Below, in pieces: positions 1-6,799 of a stretch of 6,799 nucleotides of DNA. The DNA is from an archaeon (GTDB lineage Archaea > Thermoproteota > Nitrososphaeria > Nitrososphaerales > UBA183). The DNA is taken from positions 1 through 6,799 of the forward strand of contig JAJYNM010000083.1 in assembly GCA_021786335.1 (NCBI GenBank). Direction: 5' to 3'. Made by a program: the position numbers and the translations under genes. The first letter of the stretch is position 1. Every line of letters starts with the position of its first letter. The notes under the pieces are model-generated. The model worked only from the letters and a program-made list of their open reading frames with translations, ran no database searches and was not told where the DNA came from.

Positions 1-21
1 ACGACTCTGAGGAGGGAATAG
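1..21 (+). CDS. 3' end of the 155-aa small protein gene (partial copy across the junction)
   Basis: The first seven codons read TTLRRE-stop and are identical to the last codons of the gene at 6201-6668. On the circle this is the same gene. It shows that the upstream gene ends five bases before the ATG of the P-loop NTPase, and that the GGAGG ribosome site of the NTPase lies inside the last codons of its neighbour. Confidence 0.9.
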   Translation, partial: TTLRRE

Positions 22-152
22 AGAGCATGGACAAGCTGGCACGCGCCCGGGAGCTTGGCATCCTGAAAGACGGCTGGCGTTTCATCGACTACGCCTTGGA
101 CGCTGCGCCGAAGTTCGGCTGGTTGTGTAATGTGATATGGGGCGAGAAGGGC
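1..152. repeat. Terminal redundancy, left copy (circle junction)
   Basis: These 152 bases recur at 6648-6799 at a constant offset of 6,647. The only difference I find is T at 56 against C at 6703, the third base of a leucine codon of the P-loop NTPase (CTT/CTC), so it is silent. The repeat ends at both window edges and cuts through two genes in frame, which is what an assembled circular molecule with overlapping ends looks like. A true terminal direct repeat of a linear molecule is the alternative. Confidence 0.93.
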
Positions 153-932
153 GCCGGGAAATCAGCCACCATGCTTCAGCACGGATACGCGGTCTTCCAC
201 GGGTTCGACGCCTTCGAAGAGGTGGGGCGGCATGAAGACGGGACCCCCATTAGGCGGGGCCTCATCACCGACTGGTCCGACATGGGCTCATGGGAGAAGA
301 CCCTCGCCCACGTCGTCTTCCGCCCCAGGGACTTCGCCTCGCTCCTGGGGACCGTGCTCAAGGAGAAGAGGCGCCTTACCTGGGTCGGGTGGGACGACAT
401 CAACATTCATTTTCCTAGGTCGATGTACAGCACCAATCGCCGGACGTGGGAGCAGTTCGCCCGGAATTGGGAGGGTTTCAGGGCCAACCTAAGCATCTTC
501 GAGTGTTCGGCCCCGCGGAAGGACAAGGTGGTGAGCTTCATCTTGTCCGACATGACGTGGGACTGCCTGGTCTCCGCAAGGCACAAGGCCGAGATGACCA
601 GATGGTTCTGGGACCGCGACTTCTACGAGCCCGAGAAGGTGCTGAAGTTTCGGCTCGACATCACAGCGGAGGACGTGGACCTGTCTCGAATCCCCGCGGA
701 AGTATGGACGCAGTACTGGGGGCGGAAGGTGGCTCTGATCGACGAGTCGACCGAGGACTTCAGGGGGATGCTGGAGGAGATGGAGAGCCCGAAGGGGGAG
801 CCCAGGCCAGGGGGGATAGTCTGCACCGTCTGCGCCCGGGAGTTCGCCAATTCCTACAACCTGGCGGTGCATATGATAAAACACAAGGGGGAGCCGTCGA
901 TAATCCCTTCGAAGCCGAAGATACCCCCCTAA
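27..932 (+). CDS. P-loop NTPase with C-terminal C2H2 zinc finger
   Basis: This 301-aa protein is a predicted soluble nucleoside triphosphatase; its biological task is not known to me. A Walker A motif, GEKGAGKS, lies at residues 39-46. A Walker B-like strand ending in two acidic residues (TWVGWDD, 118-124) follows about 75 residues later. A single C2H2 finger near the C-terminus has C266, C269, H282 and H286, with the core hydrophobics F273 and L279 in canonical spacing (CX2C-X12-HX3H). The finger suggests binding to DNA or to a partner. The start is set by GGAGGGA at 11-17, ten bases before the ATG. The gene is last in the long plus-strand train and follows its neighbour by five bases. Possible roles are DNA partitioning, packaging or copy control; none is proven. 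I see no transmembrane segment. Confidence 0.9.
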   Translation: MDKLARARELGILKDGWRFIDYALDAAPKFGWLCNVIWGEKGAGKSATMLQHGYAVFHGFDAFEEVGRHEDGTPIRRGLITDWSDMGSWEKTLAHVVFRPRDFASLLGTVLKEKRRLTWVGWDDINIHFPRSMYSTNRRTWEQFARNWEGFRANLSIFECSAPRKDKVVSFILSDMTWDCLVSARHKAEMTRWFWDRDFYEPEKVLKFRLDITAEDVDLSRIPAEVWTQYWGRKVALIDESTEDFRGMLEEMESPKGEPRPGGIVCTVCAREFANSYNLAVHMIKHKGEPSIIPSKPKIPP

Positions 933-2624: not shown

Positions 2625-3065
2625 TTAGGTGTCCTTTTCGAGGGCTGCGACGACGGCCCTATAGCCATCCAAGATGTCAGCCCGAAGGTCAGGAGACTCC
2701 CGGAGTGCTTTAGCGACTATCGCCAGGCCGCCGGGGTAGAGGTCGGGGTGGCTGACGACACCGCCCGGGTCCTCGCCGATTACGAGGCCCTCCAGAATGT
2801 CCGTGCCGCCCTCGGTATTGTCCAGGAGAGCAATCAGCCGTCCGAACGACGTGAGGCTGTACACGTCTTTCTTGCCGCCTTTCTGGCTCCTCTTGTGCGC
2901 GACTAGGGAGACCTGCCCCATGGCCTGGAGCTCCTTGATCGTCCCGTGCACCAGGGAGTAGTAGCTCCCCCTTTGAAGGTCGTAAGGGCTCAAGGGTCCT
3001 TCCTTCGCCAGTCGTCTGCGAATTTCTCTAGCCATGTCTTCCCGCGGGGTTCTTGCTCGGCTCAT
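2625..3065 (-). CDS. Winged-helix transcriptional regulator
   Basis: This 146-aa protein is a likely DNA-binding repressor or activator of the element. Residues about 9-77 fit a winged helix: a first helix (EDMAREIRRRLAKEG), a short second helix (LSPYDLQRG), a recognition helix (SYYSLVHGTIKELQAMG), and a basic wing, KRSQKGGKKDVYSLT, that ends in the Y-x-LT-x-x-G pattern seen in MarR/PadR-like regulators. The C-terminal half (about 85-146) is helical and may dimerise. The start chosen is the ATG at 3065. An upstream extension to 3203 stays open but would run through the TATA box and the divergent gene, so I rejected it. Two 11-bp repeats lie at and just upstream of this start, suggesting self-regulation. 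The family assignment below winged-helix level is uncertain. Confidence 0.85.
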   Translation of the reverse strand: MSRARTPREDMAREIRRRLAKEGPLSPYDLQRGSYYSLVHGTIKELQAMGQVSLVAHKRSQKGGKKDVYSLTSFGRLIALLDNTEGGTDILEGLVIGEDPGGVVSHPDLYPGGLAIVAKALRESPDLRADILDGYRAVVAALEKDT

Positions 3066-3369: not shown

Positions 3370-3634
3370 GCCCACCCGGACCGTTTCTGTGAAGATTCTG
3401 GCACACACGGCAGAAGAGGCGATCGCGCTTGTGAAGGCCTTGGATCGGGCCCTCCCCGGGGTGAAACTGACCTCGGGCGTCCGCCCTTCTGAGCGGACAC
3501 AAAGCAAGGCTACACGTTTCGACTACGAGTACTATGCTTTCGCGCTAGTCACCTTCACGCTCTCGGCGTCAGGCGAGGCGAGGCCCACGGCAGAGAACGC
3601 CAAGACCGCGTTCATGGAGGGACGCCGGCCATGA
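3347..3634 (+). CDS. Unknown 95-aa protein
   Basis: This protein is not recognised. It shows a strand-helix-strand pattern: RTVSVKILA, then AEEAIALVKALDRALPG, then a polar stretch, then YEYYAFALVTFTLSASG, with a short helix at the end. This would fit a small alpha/beta fold such as a ferredoxin-like domain, but no motif proves it. The start could be the ATG at 3347 or the one at 3356; neither has a good ribosome site, so translation may depend on ribosomes ending the preceding frame. Its stop overlaps the helicase start by 4 bp, and a GGAGG for the helicase lies within its last codons. Position directly before the helicase hints at a replication-related role, without direct evidence. Confidence 0.75.
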   Translation: MRQMSLDRPTRTVSVKILAHTAEEAIALVKALDRALPGVKLTSGVRPSERTQSKATRFDYEYYAFALVTFTLSASGEARPTAENAKTAFMEGRRP

Positions 3635-5259
3635 CAGAAGAGGCATCTGAGAGCCTGTGCCCCCGGTGCGGTGGCCGCCTTGTAGAAGTCGGCGACGGGA
3701 ACCGATACCTCGAATGTGCCAAGTTCTGTGGCTATCACTTCGATGTGCAACTACAGCGCCAAGTCACGGGCGCAGAAGAGATAGAGGAGGCGGCGGGCGA
3801 AGAGTCTTTCTCGACTGGAAAGAAAGCAGACAAGGCCAAGGAGCTGGCGTGGCAGGTTGCCGAGCACCTCCTCGAGGTCCACGACTTCGCAACCCTCGAC
3901 GGCACCGGCGAGGTCCTTGTGTATGATGCTGGGGTGTACAGGGAGGGCGGGGACTCGTTCATCCGGGGCCAGGTGCAGAAGGTCGTGGTCCCGGTCGACG
4001 TGTCGAGCCACCTAGTCAACGAGGTGGTCGGGCACATCCAGAGGTCGACCTACGTCAACAGAGAAAGATTCTACGAGCCGTCCTCACGCCTGGTGGTCGA
4101 GAACGGCCTCCTCGACACCGAGAAGTACGCCCTGGAGCCTCACACCCCGGGCTTCTACAGCATGAACAAGCTCCCCGTGGTCTACAATCCCGAAGCCGAC
4201 TGCCCGCGGTTCCGCCAGTTCCTAGGCGAGGTCCTCTACAGCGAGGATATAGCCGTCGTGCAGGAATGGCTCGGCTACTGCCTTCACCGAGGATACCCGG
4301 CCCAGGTCGCCATGCTGTTCGTCGGTGAAGGAAACAACGGGAAGAGCAGCTTGATCTCCACCCTGAAGGCCCTCCTAGGCATGGAGAACATATCCGCCGT
4401 CTCTCTTCACGAGTTGGAGCTCAACCGTTTCGCGAAGGCCGACCTCTTCGGGAAACTGGCCAATCTCTATGCTGACTTGGACGACGGGGCCCTGAAGAGC
4501 GTCGGGACCTTCAAGATGTTGACCGGAGGAGACCCGATAAGAGGCGAGAAGAAATTTCAGAGCTCGTTCACCTTCGTGAACCACGCGAAGCTGACCTTCT
4601 CTTGTAACACGGTGCCTGAGGTCTTCGAGGACACGGAGGCGTTCTTCCGGAGGTGGAAGATCATCCAGTTCCCTAACTCGTTCGACGGAGACAAGGCCGA
4701 CAAGGACCTCCTCAAGAAGCTCACCACGCCCGAGGAGCTCAGCGGAGTCCTCAATTTCGCCCTGGAGGGCCTGAAGCGGCTCAGGGCGAGCAGGTGGAGG
4801 TTTTCTAACTCGAAGAGCACCGAGGACGTCAGGCAGGATTACATCCGGCGCAGCTCGCCCATGAAGGCCTTCCTAATGGACTGCACAGATGTGAAGGCCG
4901 ACGGGGTGGTCTCCAAGAGCGGCTTGTTCAAGGCCTTCGTCGACTATTGCCAGCAGATGAAGCTCACGGCATGCACGTCCACGACGTTCTACCGGAACCT
5001 CCCCCTCTATTTCGCAGGGCAGAGCCTCCAAGACTCCAAAGAAGACGTCGACGGGAGCGGCAGGCGGGTGCTCTGCTTCAGGGGGCTGAATCTCCGCGGG
5101 AGGGAGGCGTGGGGCAAACCCCGAGAGGAGGATGTCGGCATGACAAATGATATTAAAATGGAGAAAACCACGGACATTACGGACACCCCGGACAGCTTTG
5201 TCCGCGATGTCCCAGATGTCCGCGACACAGCCCATTTTAATTATGGAGGAGAACCATGA
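3631..5259 (+). CDS. D5/P4-type superfamily 3 replicative helicase
   Basis: This 542-aa protein is a likely hexameric ATP-driven helicase that unwinds the element at its origin. A zinc ribbon occupies the N-terminus (C10, C13, C29, C33). A D5_N-like region follows (about 75-200, containing VENGLLD). The SF3 core has Walker A GEGNNGKS (232-239), Walker B ANLYADLDD (277-285), the sensor asparagine N326 in motif C and arginines R340/R341 as the likely finger. Residues about 409-461 fit the winged-helix tail of D5-like proteins. The N-terminus is too short for a primase-polymerase domain, which many relatives carry. The start is fixed by GGAGG at 3616-3620 and the ATGA overlap. The last 40 codons change to AT-rich and aspartate-repeating sequence and contain the 90-bp dyad described separately. 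Confidence 0.93.
   Translation: MTEEASESLCPRCGGRLVEVGDGNRYLECAKFCGYHFDVQLQRQVTGAEEIEEAAGEESFSTGKKADKAKELAWQVAEHLLEVHDFATLDGTGEVLVYDAGVYREGGDSFIRGQVQKVVVPVDVSSHLVNEVVGHIQRSTYVNRERFYEPSSRLVVENGLLDTEKYALEPHTPGFYSMNKLPVVYNPEADCPRFRQFLGEVLYSEDIAVVQEWLGYCLHRGYPAQVAMLFVGEGNNGKSSLISTLKALLGMENISAVSLHELELNRFAKADLFGKLANLYADLDDGALKSVGTFKMLTGGDPIRGEKKFQSSFTFVNHAKLTFSCNTVPEVFEDTEAFFRRWKIIQFPNSFDGDKADKDLLKKLTTPEELSGVLNFALEGLKRLRASRWRFSNSKSTEDVRQDYIRRSSPMKAFLMDCTDVKADGVVSKSGLFKAFVDYCQQMKLTACTSTTFYRNLPLYFAGQSLQDSKEDVDGSGRRVLCFRGLNLRGREAWGKPREEDVGMTNDIKMEKTTDITDTPDSFVRDVPDVRDTAHFNYGGEP
5127..5131 (+). promoter_or_regulatory. Internal ribosome site near the helicase 3' end
   Basis: GGAGG lies eight bases before an in-frame ATG at 5140 (helicase residue 504). 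Initiation there would yield a separate 39-aa acidic peptide matching the helicase tail, starting MTNDIKMEKT. The spacing is as good as at the true gene starts of this element. It may equally be chance in purine-rich coding sequence. Confidence 0.3.
5152..5241. repeat. 90-bp nested dyad with six 9-bp-spaced boxes; candidate origin
   Basis: GGACA occurs at 5172, 5181 and 5190 and its complement TGTCC at 5199, 5208 and 5217, all spaced 9 bp and mirrored around 5196.5. Outside them, ATTAAAATGG (5152-5161) and CCATTTTAAT (5232-5241) form a perfect 10-bp inverted repeat with the same centre. By my count 30 of 45 mirrored pairs match. The innermost arms CGGACA/TGTCCG enclose four bases. Iterated boxes flanked by AT-rich DNA beside a replication gene are typical of plasmid origins; a binding array for a regulator or an RNA hairpin before the next gene are alternatives. 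The boxes encode regularly spaced Asp and Val codons, but the outer arms are not explained by that. Confidence 0.7.
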
Positions 5260-5450
5260 CCCGCCCTCCTTTCACCGGCGGCCTTGGCCTAGCCCTCTAC
5301 GGCAGCCTTGAAGAGCAAGCCCGCGTTGAACGCCTCCTGGCAAACGCCGGGGTCGTGGTGGTCCATAGGCACATGCGAAAGACGACCGCCGGCCAGAGGC
5401 CCATATTGGAGCTGACCCTGCAGCTTCCACCCGAGGACGGAAGCCCATGA
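5256..5450 (+). CDS. Unknown 64-aa protein
   Basis: This protein is not recognised. The sequence suggests a compact strand-helix-strand-strand fold: GLGLALYG, the helix SLEEQARVERLLANAG, the very hydrophobic strand VVVVHRHM, and a closing strand RPILELTLQLP. No catalytic or metal-binding pattern is visible, and the hydrophobic run is too short to cross a membrane. The start is well supported by GGAGGAG at 5245-5251 and the 4-bp ATGA overlap with the helicase. The dyad at 5152-5241 ends just before this ribosome site, so folding of the message could limit its translation. Confidence 0.8.
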   Translation: MTRPPFTGGLGLALYGSLEEQARVERLLANAGVVVVHRHMRKTTAGQRPILELTLQLPPEDGSP

Positions 5451-5767
5451 GCAAGGAGCCCCTGAAACCGGAGGACCCGCACACCGAGGCTGACCTACGC
5501 AACGAGATTCTGGCCGATTTGGAGCATGCTCCCCTTTTCCATCTGTTGCACGCCCAGGAGTGGCTCCTCTTTATGCTCCAGTTCGACGAAGGCATCGCCG
5601 AGATCGACGCCAAGCCGCTTGCCTCACGAGGCGCCAAGACCTCCGGCCTGGCTGCCAAGTTCGAGAGGAGGGCCGAAGTGTCCAGGGCGCGTGTGGTGAG
5701 AGACAAGGCTGACCTGGCGAGAGTCGAGGCCGAGCTCGCACGCCGACAGAGGGAGAGAGACAGATGA
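5447..5767 (+). CDS. Unknown 106-aa helical protein
   Basis: This predicted all-helical protein is not assigned to any family I know. After a polar head comes a hydrophobic helical part (ILADLEHAPLFHLL, then EWLLFMLQFDEG), then IAEIDAKPL at residues 50-58, and a long, very charged C-terminal helix (about 68-106) rich in Arg, Glu and Ala that may form a coiled coil or bind nucleic acid. The IAEIDAKPL segment matches IAEMDAQGL in the gene at 6201-6668; the DNA agrees at 21 of 23 bases there (5592-5614 and 6535-6557). The ATGA overlap with the preceding stop fixes the start; the ribosome site is weak, so coupled translation is likely. Confidence 0.78.
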   Translation: MSKEPLKPEDPHTEADLRNEILADLEHAPLFHLLHAQEWLLFMLQFDEGIAEIDAKPLASRGAKTSGLAAKFERRAEVSRARVVRDKADLARVEAELARRQRERDR

Positions 5768-6204: not shown

Positions 6205-6668
6205 CCGACGAAGTCTCTCTGGACAAGGTGGCCCTGATCGCCGTCCTGAACGCCCTTCAGCGGATGCAGGGCGCCCTCCTCGAGGGAGACGTCCGCAGGG
6301 CGGCGGGGGAGGCCGACCTGGCGTGGGTGCTTCTGCCCCTGTCTGTCAGGGTGAAGTTTCAAGACCGCCCCTCTGAGGCCCTCGAAGCGAAAGCGGCCCA
6401 GGAGCTCCCCTCCGAGGAGGCGCTGTCCCAGATGCAACAGTTCCGAAGGGCGTCCGCGTTCGCTGTGGACGCATATAGGGAGGGCCTACACCGAAAGCTC
6501 GCCGAGAGGGTCCTCTGGGCCTTCGCTGCCGAGTGCATCGCCGAGATGGACGCCCAGGGGCTCTATGTCTCCCCGGCGGGGAAGGGGCGCGTGGTCCCGA
6601 CCGATGAGCGGGGGGCCACCGAGCAGCCCCCGACCAAGGGCCTGCCGACGACTCTGAGGAGGGAATAG
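6201..6668 (+). CDS. Unknown 155-aa helical protein, relative of its neighbours
   Basis: This protein is not recognised. It is predicted to be helical for about the first 122 residues, then has a disordered, proline- and charge-rich tail (GKGRVVPTDERGATEQPP). It shares the QxxxG-type helix ALQRMQGALLEG (18-29) and the C-terminal helical region (91-122) with the preceding gene product, and IAEMDAQGL (113-121) with IAEIDAKPL of the gene at 5447-5767. It starts in a 4-bp ATGA overlap and ends five bases before the NTPase ATG, with the NTPase ribosome site inside its last codons. The final seven codons are repeated at the window start because the molecule is circular. Confidence 0.8.
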   Translation: MTDEVSLDKVALIAVLNALQRMQGALLEGDVRRAAGEADLAWVLLPLSVRVKFQDRPSEALEAKAAQELPSEEALSQMQQFRRASAFAVDAYREGLHRKLAERVLWAFAAECIAEMDAQGLYVSPAGKGRVVPTDERGATEQPPTKGLPTTLRRE

Positions 6669-6799
6669 AGAGCATGGACAAGCTGGCACGCGCCCGGGAG
6701 CTCGGCATCCTGAAAGACGGCTGGCGTTTCATCGACTACGCCTTGGACGCTGCGCCGAAGTTCGGCTGGTTGTGTAATGTGATATGGGGCGAGAAGGGC
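6648..6799. repeat. Terminal redundancy, right copy
   Basis: This is the second copy of bases 1-152, with C at 6703 in place of T at 56. It runs to the last base of the window, so the true overlap may have been longer before trimming. Removing it leaves a 6,647-bp circle in which all genes at the junction stay in frame. Confidence 0.93.
6674..6799 (+). CDS. 5' part of the P-loop NTPase gene (partial copy across the junction)
   Basis: These 42 codons repeat residues 1-42 of the NTPase at 27-932, cut off inside the Walker A motif (GEKG) by the window end. The single base change at 6703 leaves leucine 10 unchanged. On the circle this is the same gene and should not be counted twice. GGAGG at 6658-6662 is its ribosome site. 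Confidence 0.9.
   Translation, partial: MDKLARARELGILKDGWRFIDYALDAAPKFGWLCNVIWGEKG

What the first reader, a model, noticed from the sequence alone, without database searches (positions are those of the whole stretch)
5152..5241. Nested 90-bp dyad with 3+3 boxes at 9-bp spacing inside the helicase tail: candidate replication origin
Three GGACA and three TGTCC boxes are spaced exactly 9 bp and mirrored about 5196.5. Two perfect 10-bp AT-rich arms (ATTAAAATGG/CCATTTTAAT) 80 bp apart share that same centre. Two independent repeat sets with one centre are unlikely by chance, and the protein code does not require the outer arms. AT-rich DNA next to iterated boxes beside a helicase gene resembles a plasmid origin, here embedded in the gene for the protein that may use it.
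Basis: partly seen in the sequence, partly recalled or inferred. Interest (0 to 1): 0.82.

Follow-up and report, generated by a model that had tools for sequence, protein, structure and literature searches.

The report
Replication origin inside its helicase gene
A small, probably archaeal, circular DNA element appears to carry the docking site that starts its own copying inside the last codons of the gene for a DNA-unwinding protein that may use it, and the same kind of site recurs beside related genes in archaea, some bacteria, Sulfolobus plasmids and a bacterial virus.

Summary
The dyad is real: six GGACA/TGTCC boxes every 9 bp, two perfect 10-bp AT-rich arms, centre 5196.5; 0 of 20,000 synonymous recodings reach its symmetry. 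In 50 of 85 loci with relatives of this SF3 (P4/D5-like) helicase, an inverted ladder of 9-bp repeats follows the helicase domain; at 7, 8, 10, 11 or 12 bp only 1-7 of 85 exceed shuffles. Of these 50, 24 lie inside the helicase frame, 17 after its stop and 9 across it, so the DNA is kept whether or not it is translated. Mirror-partner repeats are no more alike than other pairs, pointing to protein sites rather than a hairpin. Sulfolobus pRN1's required stem-loop holds GGACA boxes 9 bp apart, and phage P4's annotated crr has 9-bp-spaced iterons. Best reading: an iteron-type replication origin of the P4-crr/PICI/pRN kind, read as coding sequence and laid out inside-out (AT-rich DNA outside the boxes). 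Against: gel shifts found no specific binding of pRN1's protein to its stem-loop, GC skew does not mark the site, and nothing was tested at the bench. New variant of a known kind.

The parts
3631..5259 (+). SF3 (P4/D5-like) helicase gene, 542 aa; D5_N and DUF5906 domains, no primase domain recognised
   Evidence: Pfam DUF5906 E 4.7e-20, D5_N 9.1e-9; phrog_864 DNA primase E 7.7e-90; best PDB fold match SaPI5 primase-helicase 7ola, E 1.6e-12, TM 0.42 by query
4858..5094 (+). C-terminal winged-helix-like domain, residues about 410-488, candidate reader of the boxes
   Evidence: Weak RFX_DNA_binding match at 413-461, E 1.7e-4, below its curated cut-off; helix-strand-helix-helix-strand-strand order in the model; binding role inferred from P4 alpha as told in PMC4234260
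5131..5256 (+). Helicase C-terminal tail that translates the dyad, residues 501-542, low-confidence, probably disordered
   Evidence: pLDDT below 50 over 501-542
5140..5161 (+). Left AT-rich arm (candidate unwinding element)
   Evidence: Most AT-rich 20-mer of the circle starts at 5140; leave-one-out motif rank 1 of 13,566 positions
5168..5194 (+). Three 9-bp repeats, core GGACA at 5172, 5181, 5190
5199..5225 (-). Three 9-bp repeats in the opposite direction, TGTCC at 5199, 5208, 5217
5225..5241 (-). Right AT-rich arm, inverted copy of the left (perfect 10-bp match at 5232-5241)
   Evidence: leave-one-out motif rank 5 of 13,566
5256..5450 (+). Downstream small open frame overlapping the helicase stop by 4 bases
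   Evidence: no Pfam or PHROG match

Best explanation
The 90-bp dyad is the cis-acting replication region of the element: two inverted modules, each an AT-rich motif followed, about 20 bp on, by three 9-bp repeats (iterons, core GGACA). The helicase's C-terminal winged helix, perhaps with a host factor or on supercoiled DNA, probably binds the iterons, assembles a hexamer on each arm and melts the neighbouring AT-rich DNA, giving two diverging forks. Shown here: the anatomy, its recurrence beside relatives' helicases inside and outside the frame, and 9-bp-spaced inverted boxes in P4 crr and in the pRN1, pRN2 and pHEN7 stem-loops. Inferred: which protein binds, hexamer loading, melting and fork direction.
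For: Inverted 3x9-bp ladder above the 99% shuffle level in 50 of 85 loci at period 9, against 2, 6, 1, 7 and 5 of 85 at periods 7, 8, 10, 11 and 12 (this comparison uses one shuffle per locus). Symmetric dyads (score 19 or more) in 27 of 63 loci with helicase of 300 bits or more, against 2.8% of 784 control windows from the fetched loci. In 35 dyads chosen without regard to lag, lag-9 self-match is 514/750 (both arms counted), lag 18 0.51, other lags 0.23-0.33; lag 9 is best in 22 of 35. Dyad centre 42-190 bp past the helicase domain in 29 of 35. 2+2 ladders against 100 shuffles each: pRN1 0, pRN2 1, pHEN7 0, P4 crr side 0 shuffles as good. pRN1's stem-loop is required for replication (PMC4234260); P4 crr is annotated as cis-required, just past alpha, with type-1 repeats 9 bp apart at 4314/4323 and 4494/4503. 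A motif from 14 AT-rich arms of seven loci ranks P4 ori first (17.1 bits) and one crr copy second (7.8, next 7.5) in the P4 genome. All 6 pattern-found viral loci with an A1-type helicase have the dyad 32-176 bp past its 3' end.
Against: 35 of 85 loci show no significant ladder. Gel shifts and footprints showed no specific binding of pRN1's replication protein to its stem-loop, and its authors say they lack direct evidence that it is the origin (PMC4234260 section 14). pRN1's stem is a perfect 21-bp mirror, spacers included, and one stem mutation replicated only with a symmetry-restoring partner, which fits a hairpin. pDL10 of the same plasmid family has no ladder (43 of 100 shuffles as good). 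P4's ori repeats are 10-11 bp apart, and in the P4 ori hit the iterons lie on the other side of the AT-rich motif. The AT-rich motif is significant in only 17 of 37 ladder loci, 11 of 31 outside the training set. GC skew does not mark the site. DNA-pattern-first hits in viral contigs rarely adjoin this helicase type: 6 of 118 type B, 0 of 125 type A. No binding or replication data for any of the new loci.
Confidence: 0.78

Rival explanations
1. DNA cruciform or RNA hairpin: the arms matter because they pair with each other, as a stem-loop origin or an mRNA structure at the gene end.
For: Strong folding scores; in pRN1 one stem mutation replicated only when a second restored symmetry, and no specific protein binding was seen (PMC4234260); pRN1's spacers are mirrored too.
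Against: Across 38 ladders, mirror-partner repeats match 6.32 of 9 positions and non-mirror ones 6.41; deviations are matched by the mirror partner in 30 of 355 cases, by non-partners in 62 of 710 (one of the 38, L115, is mis-registered). Two opposite layouts exist. No Rfam family at gathering level in the window, no terminator-like site in 4900-5500.
Confidence: 0.13
2. Operator: a regulator, perhaps the protein on the minus strand (2628-3062), binds the boxes to control expression of helicase or downstream genes.
For: Inverted boxes with AT-rich flanks are also typical of operators; replication initiators often self-regulate (general knowledge).
Against: The site follows the helicase domain although, among the fetched loci, only the helicase and a distant integrase (5 loci) are shared with the window. 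No sigma-70-type promoter-like match near (archaeal promoters are not covered by that scan).
Confidence: 0.05
3. Partition (centromere-like) or recombination site.
For: Iterated boxes also occur in such sites (general knowledge); the element has a tyrosine integrase at 1094-2380.
Against: The site is tied to the helicase, not to the integrase; P4 crr and pRN1 tie such sites to replication.
Confidence: 0.02
4. The repeats exist for the protein: a three-residue-repeat tail.
For: Lag-3 residue repetition exceeds most shuffles in all 10 tails examined (0 to 13 of 500 shuffles as high). The GACA core is in the same codon phase in 14 of 18 embedded loci that have one.
Against: 26 of 50 ladders are outside or across the frame end. 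Embedded tails share only what the boxes impose (D or V at every third residue) and otherwise differ, e.g. TDITDTPD, NGGLNGLTGL, VPTVPTVP. Synonymous codons do not give the dyad. The tail is low-confidence in the model.
Confidence: 0.02

Closest known systems
Phage P4 crr and ori (type-1 iterons of the alpha protein)
   Same: Helicase-initiator gene directly upstream; inverted iterons, two of them 9 bp apart in each 120-bp crr repeat; AT-rich flank ATTAAAAGAGAAAAAC next to GGTGAACA
   Different: P4 iteron is GGTGAACA-like, not GGACA; two crr copies plus a separate ori whose repeats are 10-11 bp apart; AT-rich part lies between iteron sets; not inside the helicase gene
pRN1-family plasmid stem-loop (Sulfolobus)
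   Same: About 100-bp dyad just 3' of an SF3 plus winged-helix replication gene; GGACA boxes 9 bp apart
   Different: Two boxes per arm, AT-rich part inside, perfect mirror stem, outside the gene; its authors describe it as lacking iterons and saw no specific binding
PICI/SaPI rep-ori
   Same: Rep gene next to two sets of iterons with AT-rich DNA (PMC6092414 passages); best fold match of the helicase is SaPI5 primase-helicase
   Different: In the E. coli PICIs shown there the iterons always flank the AT-rich region; here the AT-rich arms flank the iterons. PICI/SaPI sequences were not fetched or compared.
SV40-type core origin (recalled, not tested)
   Same: SF3 helicase; inverted pentanucleotides in the centre with AT-rich DNA outside
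   Different: Different box, spacing and origin-binding domain

Membership tests
P4-crr / PICI-type iteron origin of helicase-initiators | SF3 helicase-initiator gene adjacent | tested here: met
P4-crr / PICI-type iteron origin of helicase-initiators | Two inverted sets of short iterons | tested here: met
P4-crr / PICI-type iteron origin of helicase-initiators | AT-rich region between the two iteron sets | tested here: not met
   In the window the AT-rich arms lie outside the iterons; relatives L008, L017, L021 and L023 do meet it
P4-crr / PICI-type iteron origin of helicase-initiators | Initiator binds the iterons; segment supports replication | not testable with these tools
   needs experiment
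pRN1-type stem-loop origin | About 100-bp dyad at the 3' end of the replication gene | tested here: met
pRN1-type stem-loop origin | Stem pairing itself conserved (covariation) | tested here: not met
   no mirror excess in 38 ladders; pRN1 itself has a perfect stem
pRN1-type stem-loop origin | Prim-Pol primase in the same protein | tested here: not met
   no primase domain recognised in the window's helicase
Rolling-circle origin | HUH or other nicking initiator gene | tested here: inconclusive
   none recognised among ten genes scanned, but five of the ten have no Pfam match at all
Structured RNA / intrinsic terminator | Known RNA family or GC hairpin followed by a T run | tested here: not met

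The most novel reading that the evidence does not exclude
One ancient origin device, an AT-rich motif about 20 bp from three 9-bp iterons in an inverted pair, has travelled with SF3 helicases through Archaea and Bacteria. It unifies P4 crr, the pRN1 stem-loop and the elements here, exists in two opposite layouts, and in many elements has been absorbed into the initiator's coding sequence, so that the origin is translated as a throw-away tail.
Probability: 0.45. Interest if true: 0.75.

Novelty: new variant of a known kind. Interest (0 to 1): 0.6.

Why it matters
It turns a stem-loop origin whose binding motifs were called not yet identified (pRN1, PMC4234260) into a testable iteron model, gives a search rule for origins of uncultured archaeal plasmids and proviruses, and offers many cases where a replication site and a protein-coding sequence overlap with the DNA constraint winning.

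Tried and rejected
Hairpin/RNA reading: mirror covariation, Rfam and terminators gave nothing for it; pRN1 keeps it alive. Cumulative GC skew gave no support. Maximum symmetry attainable by codon choice from protein tails alone had too little power: shuffled tails reached the observed value in 0 to 41 of 60, so I do not use it. Exact GGACA search in viral contigs with 3+2 boxes: 0 hits. Scans of viral contigs with the window's helicase or ATPase sequence alone: nothing. Other relatives checked against 100 shuffles each: Javan472 phage, Oceanotoga phage, Alicyclobacillus plasmid, Halarchaeum plasmid and pDL10 show no clear ladder (2+2: 45, 69, 6, 35 and 43 shuffles as good; 3+3: 5, 85, 11, 38 and 96); pRN1, pRN2 and pHEN7 fail as 3+3 (82, 54 and 5) and pass only as 2+2; a Halorubrum tailed virus passes (2+2: 0; 3+3: 1). 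The full module motif with the GGACA core does not single out P4 crr.

Reciprocal DNA-first test: of 85 viral loci whose nearest long frame has its 3' end by the dyad (36 type B, 49 type A) I scanned 18: ten type B in id order with the dyad 0-330 bp past the frame, and eight type A picked by hand; 15 of 18 carry helicase-type domains (6 DUF5906/VapE, 7 AAA_25, 1 DUF3987, 1 UvrD-like) and 3 none. Two type A loci with 5'-end neighbours were scanned too: no match and a terminase match. The other 158 entries had 5'-end neighbours (86) or none within 700 bp (72).

Dropped rows: near-identical loci (over 90% in the last 600 bases of the domain); helicases under 120 bits (11 of 96) before the 85-locus counts; P0001 and tails under 30 residues. 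Contig labels are the depositors' and may be wrong; the window's host is inferred from named relatives (Nitrososphaerales).

Papers: PMC4234260 abstract, passages, section 14 and section 18 part 1; PMC6092414 and PMC7145576 passages only; other papers seen as search listings. No paper describing this ladder was found in searches; that library lacks most subscription journals.

Full report
What is there. The window is a 6,647-bp apparent circle (152-bp terminal repeat with one mismatch) with a tyrosine integrase (1094-2380), a DnaA-like ATPase with a C2H2 finger (27-932), small genes and an SF3 helicase (3631-5259) with D5_N and DUF5906 domains. The reported dyad is exact: six boxes every 9 bp and two perfect 10-bp arms around 5196.5. 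It is the best symmetric place in the window (28 against 14) and is not a by-product of the protein code (0 of 20,000 synonymous recodings).

Relatives. A protein search gave 422 relatives; the window and 23 of them were aligned (A1). Ten tails (the window's and nine relatives') repeat every three residues, as a 9-bp DNA repeat would when translated. DNA was obtained from genome, viral, plasmid and phage collections and reduced to 96 distinct helicase loci.

Test 1, symmetry. Symmetric dyads of score 19 or more lie past the helicase domain in 27 of 63 loci with helicase scores of 300 bits or more, against 2.8% of 784 equally long control windows. Test 2, period. In 35 dyads found by symmetry alone, lag-9 self-match is 514/750; lag 18 is 0.51; other lags are 0.23-0.33. 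Test 3, ladder. A detector for three 9-bp repeats facing three inverted ones exceeds the 99% shuffle level in 50 of 85 loci at period 9 and in 1-7 of 85 at periods 7, 8, 10, 11 and 12. Period 12, also a multiple of three, serves as a control for codon periodicity. 35 of 85 loci show no significant ladder.

DNA rather than protein. Of the 50 ladders, 24 lie wholly inside the helicase frame, 17 wholly after the stop and 9 across it; the dyad centre is 42-190 bp past the conserved domain in 29 of 35 dyads. Among embedded ladders (24 by a slightly different cut), 18 hold a GACA core: 14 have it in one codon phase (L008 for 4 of its 5 copies) and L004, L006, L089 and L109 in others. Same-phase tails therefore share D or V every third residue; the rest differ (TDITDTPD, NGGLNGLTGL, VPTVPTVP). 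In the window's tail the model has pLDDT below 50 (model mean 69.1).

Sites or stem. If the arms were kept for pairing, mirror-partner repeats should resemble each other more than other pairs. They do not: 6.32 against 6.41 of 9, and deviations are matched in 30 of 355 (mirror) and 62 of 710 (non-mirror) comparisons (removing the mis-registered L115 by subtraction gives 26 of 327 and 58 of 654). pRN1 is an exception, with a perfect 21-bp stem.

Half-module and two layouts. Several loci share a motif like ATTAAAATRGGGAAAA with the first box about 20 bp from its start. Two copies face each other, either AT-rich outside and boxes inside with a gap of 4-27 bp (window, L090, L123, L125) or boxes outside and AT-rich inside with a gap of 52-72 bp (L008, L017, L021, L023). 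The motif is significant in 17 of 37 ladder loci, 11 of 31 outside the training loci; L001, L002, L004 and L039 lack it. In leave-one-out scans it ranks 1 to 7 for 12 of 14 sites, 32 and 116 for the others. The 14 training arms come from the window, L090, L017, L008, L021, L015 and L023; L023 is labelled a Dehalococcoidia bacterium, the others are archaeal, unnamed or the window.

Link to function. pRN1's 100-bp stem-loop, just past orf904, is required for replication and works when moved (PMC4234260); [quoted passage not shown] Its arms read TGTCCATAGTGTCCAAC and GTTGGACACTATGGACA: the window's box at the window's spacing, two per arm. As 2+2 ladders pRN1, pRN2 and pHEN7 beat 100, 99 and 100 of 100 shuffles; pDL10 does not. 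Against this, the authors found no specific binding of the replication protein to the region by gel shift or footprint and say direct evidence for origin function is missing; they suggest host factors or supercoiling (section 14). P4's record annotates crr as cis-required for replication, about 45 bp past the alpha gene, with type-1 repeats at 4314/4323 and 4494/4503; its ori repeats are 10-11 bp apart. P4's crr side beats 100 of 100 shuffles as 2+2 and as 3+3. Its flank ATTAAAAGAGAAAAACGAAAGGTGAACAGTGTGAACA resembles the window's ATTAAAATGGAGAAAACCACGGACATTACGGACA. The AT-rich motif ranks P4 ori first (17.1) and one crr copy second (7.8, third place 7.5); the other crr copy is not in the top eight, and the full module with the GGACA core does not single out crr. 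PICI origins of E. [quoted passage not shown]

DNA-first search. Only 6 loci had an A1-type helicase, but in all 6 the ladder lies 32-176 bp past its 3' end. In 18 chosen loci of 85 with a frame ending by the ladder, 15 carried replicative-helicase-type domains, AAA_25 as well as SF3. So such ladders are not private to SF3 helicases, and about two thirds of the entries (158 of 243) have other or no neighbours and remain unexplained.

Mechanism. Most likely the winged helix reads the iterons, hexamers build on each arm, and the AT-rich DNA opens. With AT-rich DNA outside, the two helicases would naturally diverge; with it inside they would start towards each other. These steps are inferred.

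Verdict. Filed as a new variant of a known kind, because the PICI feature of AT-rich DNA between iteron sets is not met here.

Noticed in passing
P0001 (98% identical helicase) against window 5190-5203: The only difference in the last 42 residues, SF to KA, equals flipping the central tetranucleotide GCTT to AAGC in DNA, as if the middle of the palindrome had inverted; inferred from protein only.
   Followed up: partly
L157, L261, L264, L265, L267, L270, L273, L278, L284, L289 (viral contigs): GGACA ladders (many with a 14-bp gap) lie 2.17-2.24 kb from the 3' end, on the 5' side, of a frame of mostly 508-514 aa (542 in L157, 612 in L261); L284's frame has no Pfam hit, and L157's has a weak terminase match; the others were not scanned.
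   Followed up: partly
L168, L262, L269, L272, L274, L276, L291: GGACA ladders also lie at the 3' end of AAA_25 (RecA-fold) helicase genes, so the site type is not tied to one helicase fold.
   Followed up: partly
window 27-932: DnaA-like ATPase (phrog_5484, E 7.4e-10) with a C-terminal C2H2 finger; no relative in the fetched loci L001-L141 by tblastn.
   Followed up: partly
window 1-152 and 6648-6799: Terminal repeat with one mismatch (position 56 T/C): a circle from a mixed population, or a tandem integrated copy.
   Followed up: no
L029, L105, L111: Other repeat units at 9-bp spacing (consensus GCTGTCCAA, GTCAGGGTT, TGTCAGGGT) beside relatives' helicases suggest the box sequence drifts while the spacing stays.
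   Followed up: partly
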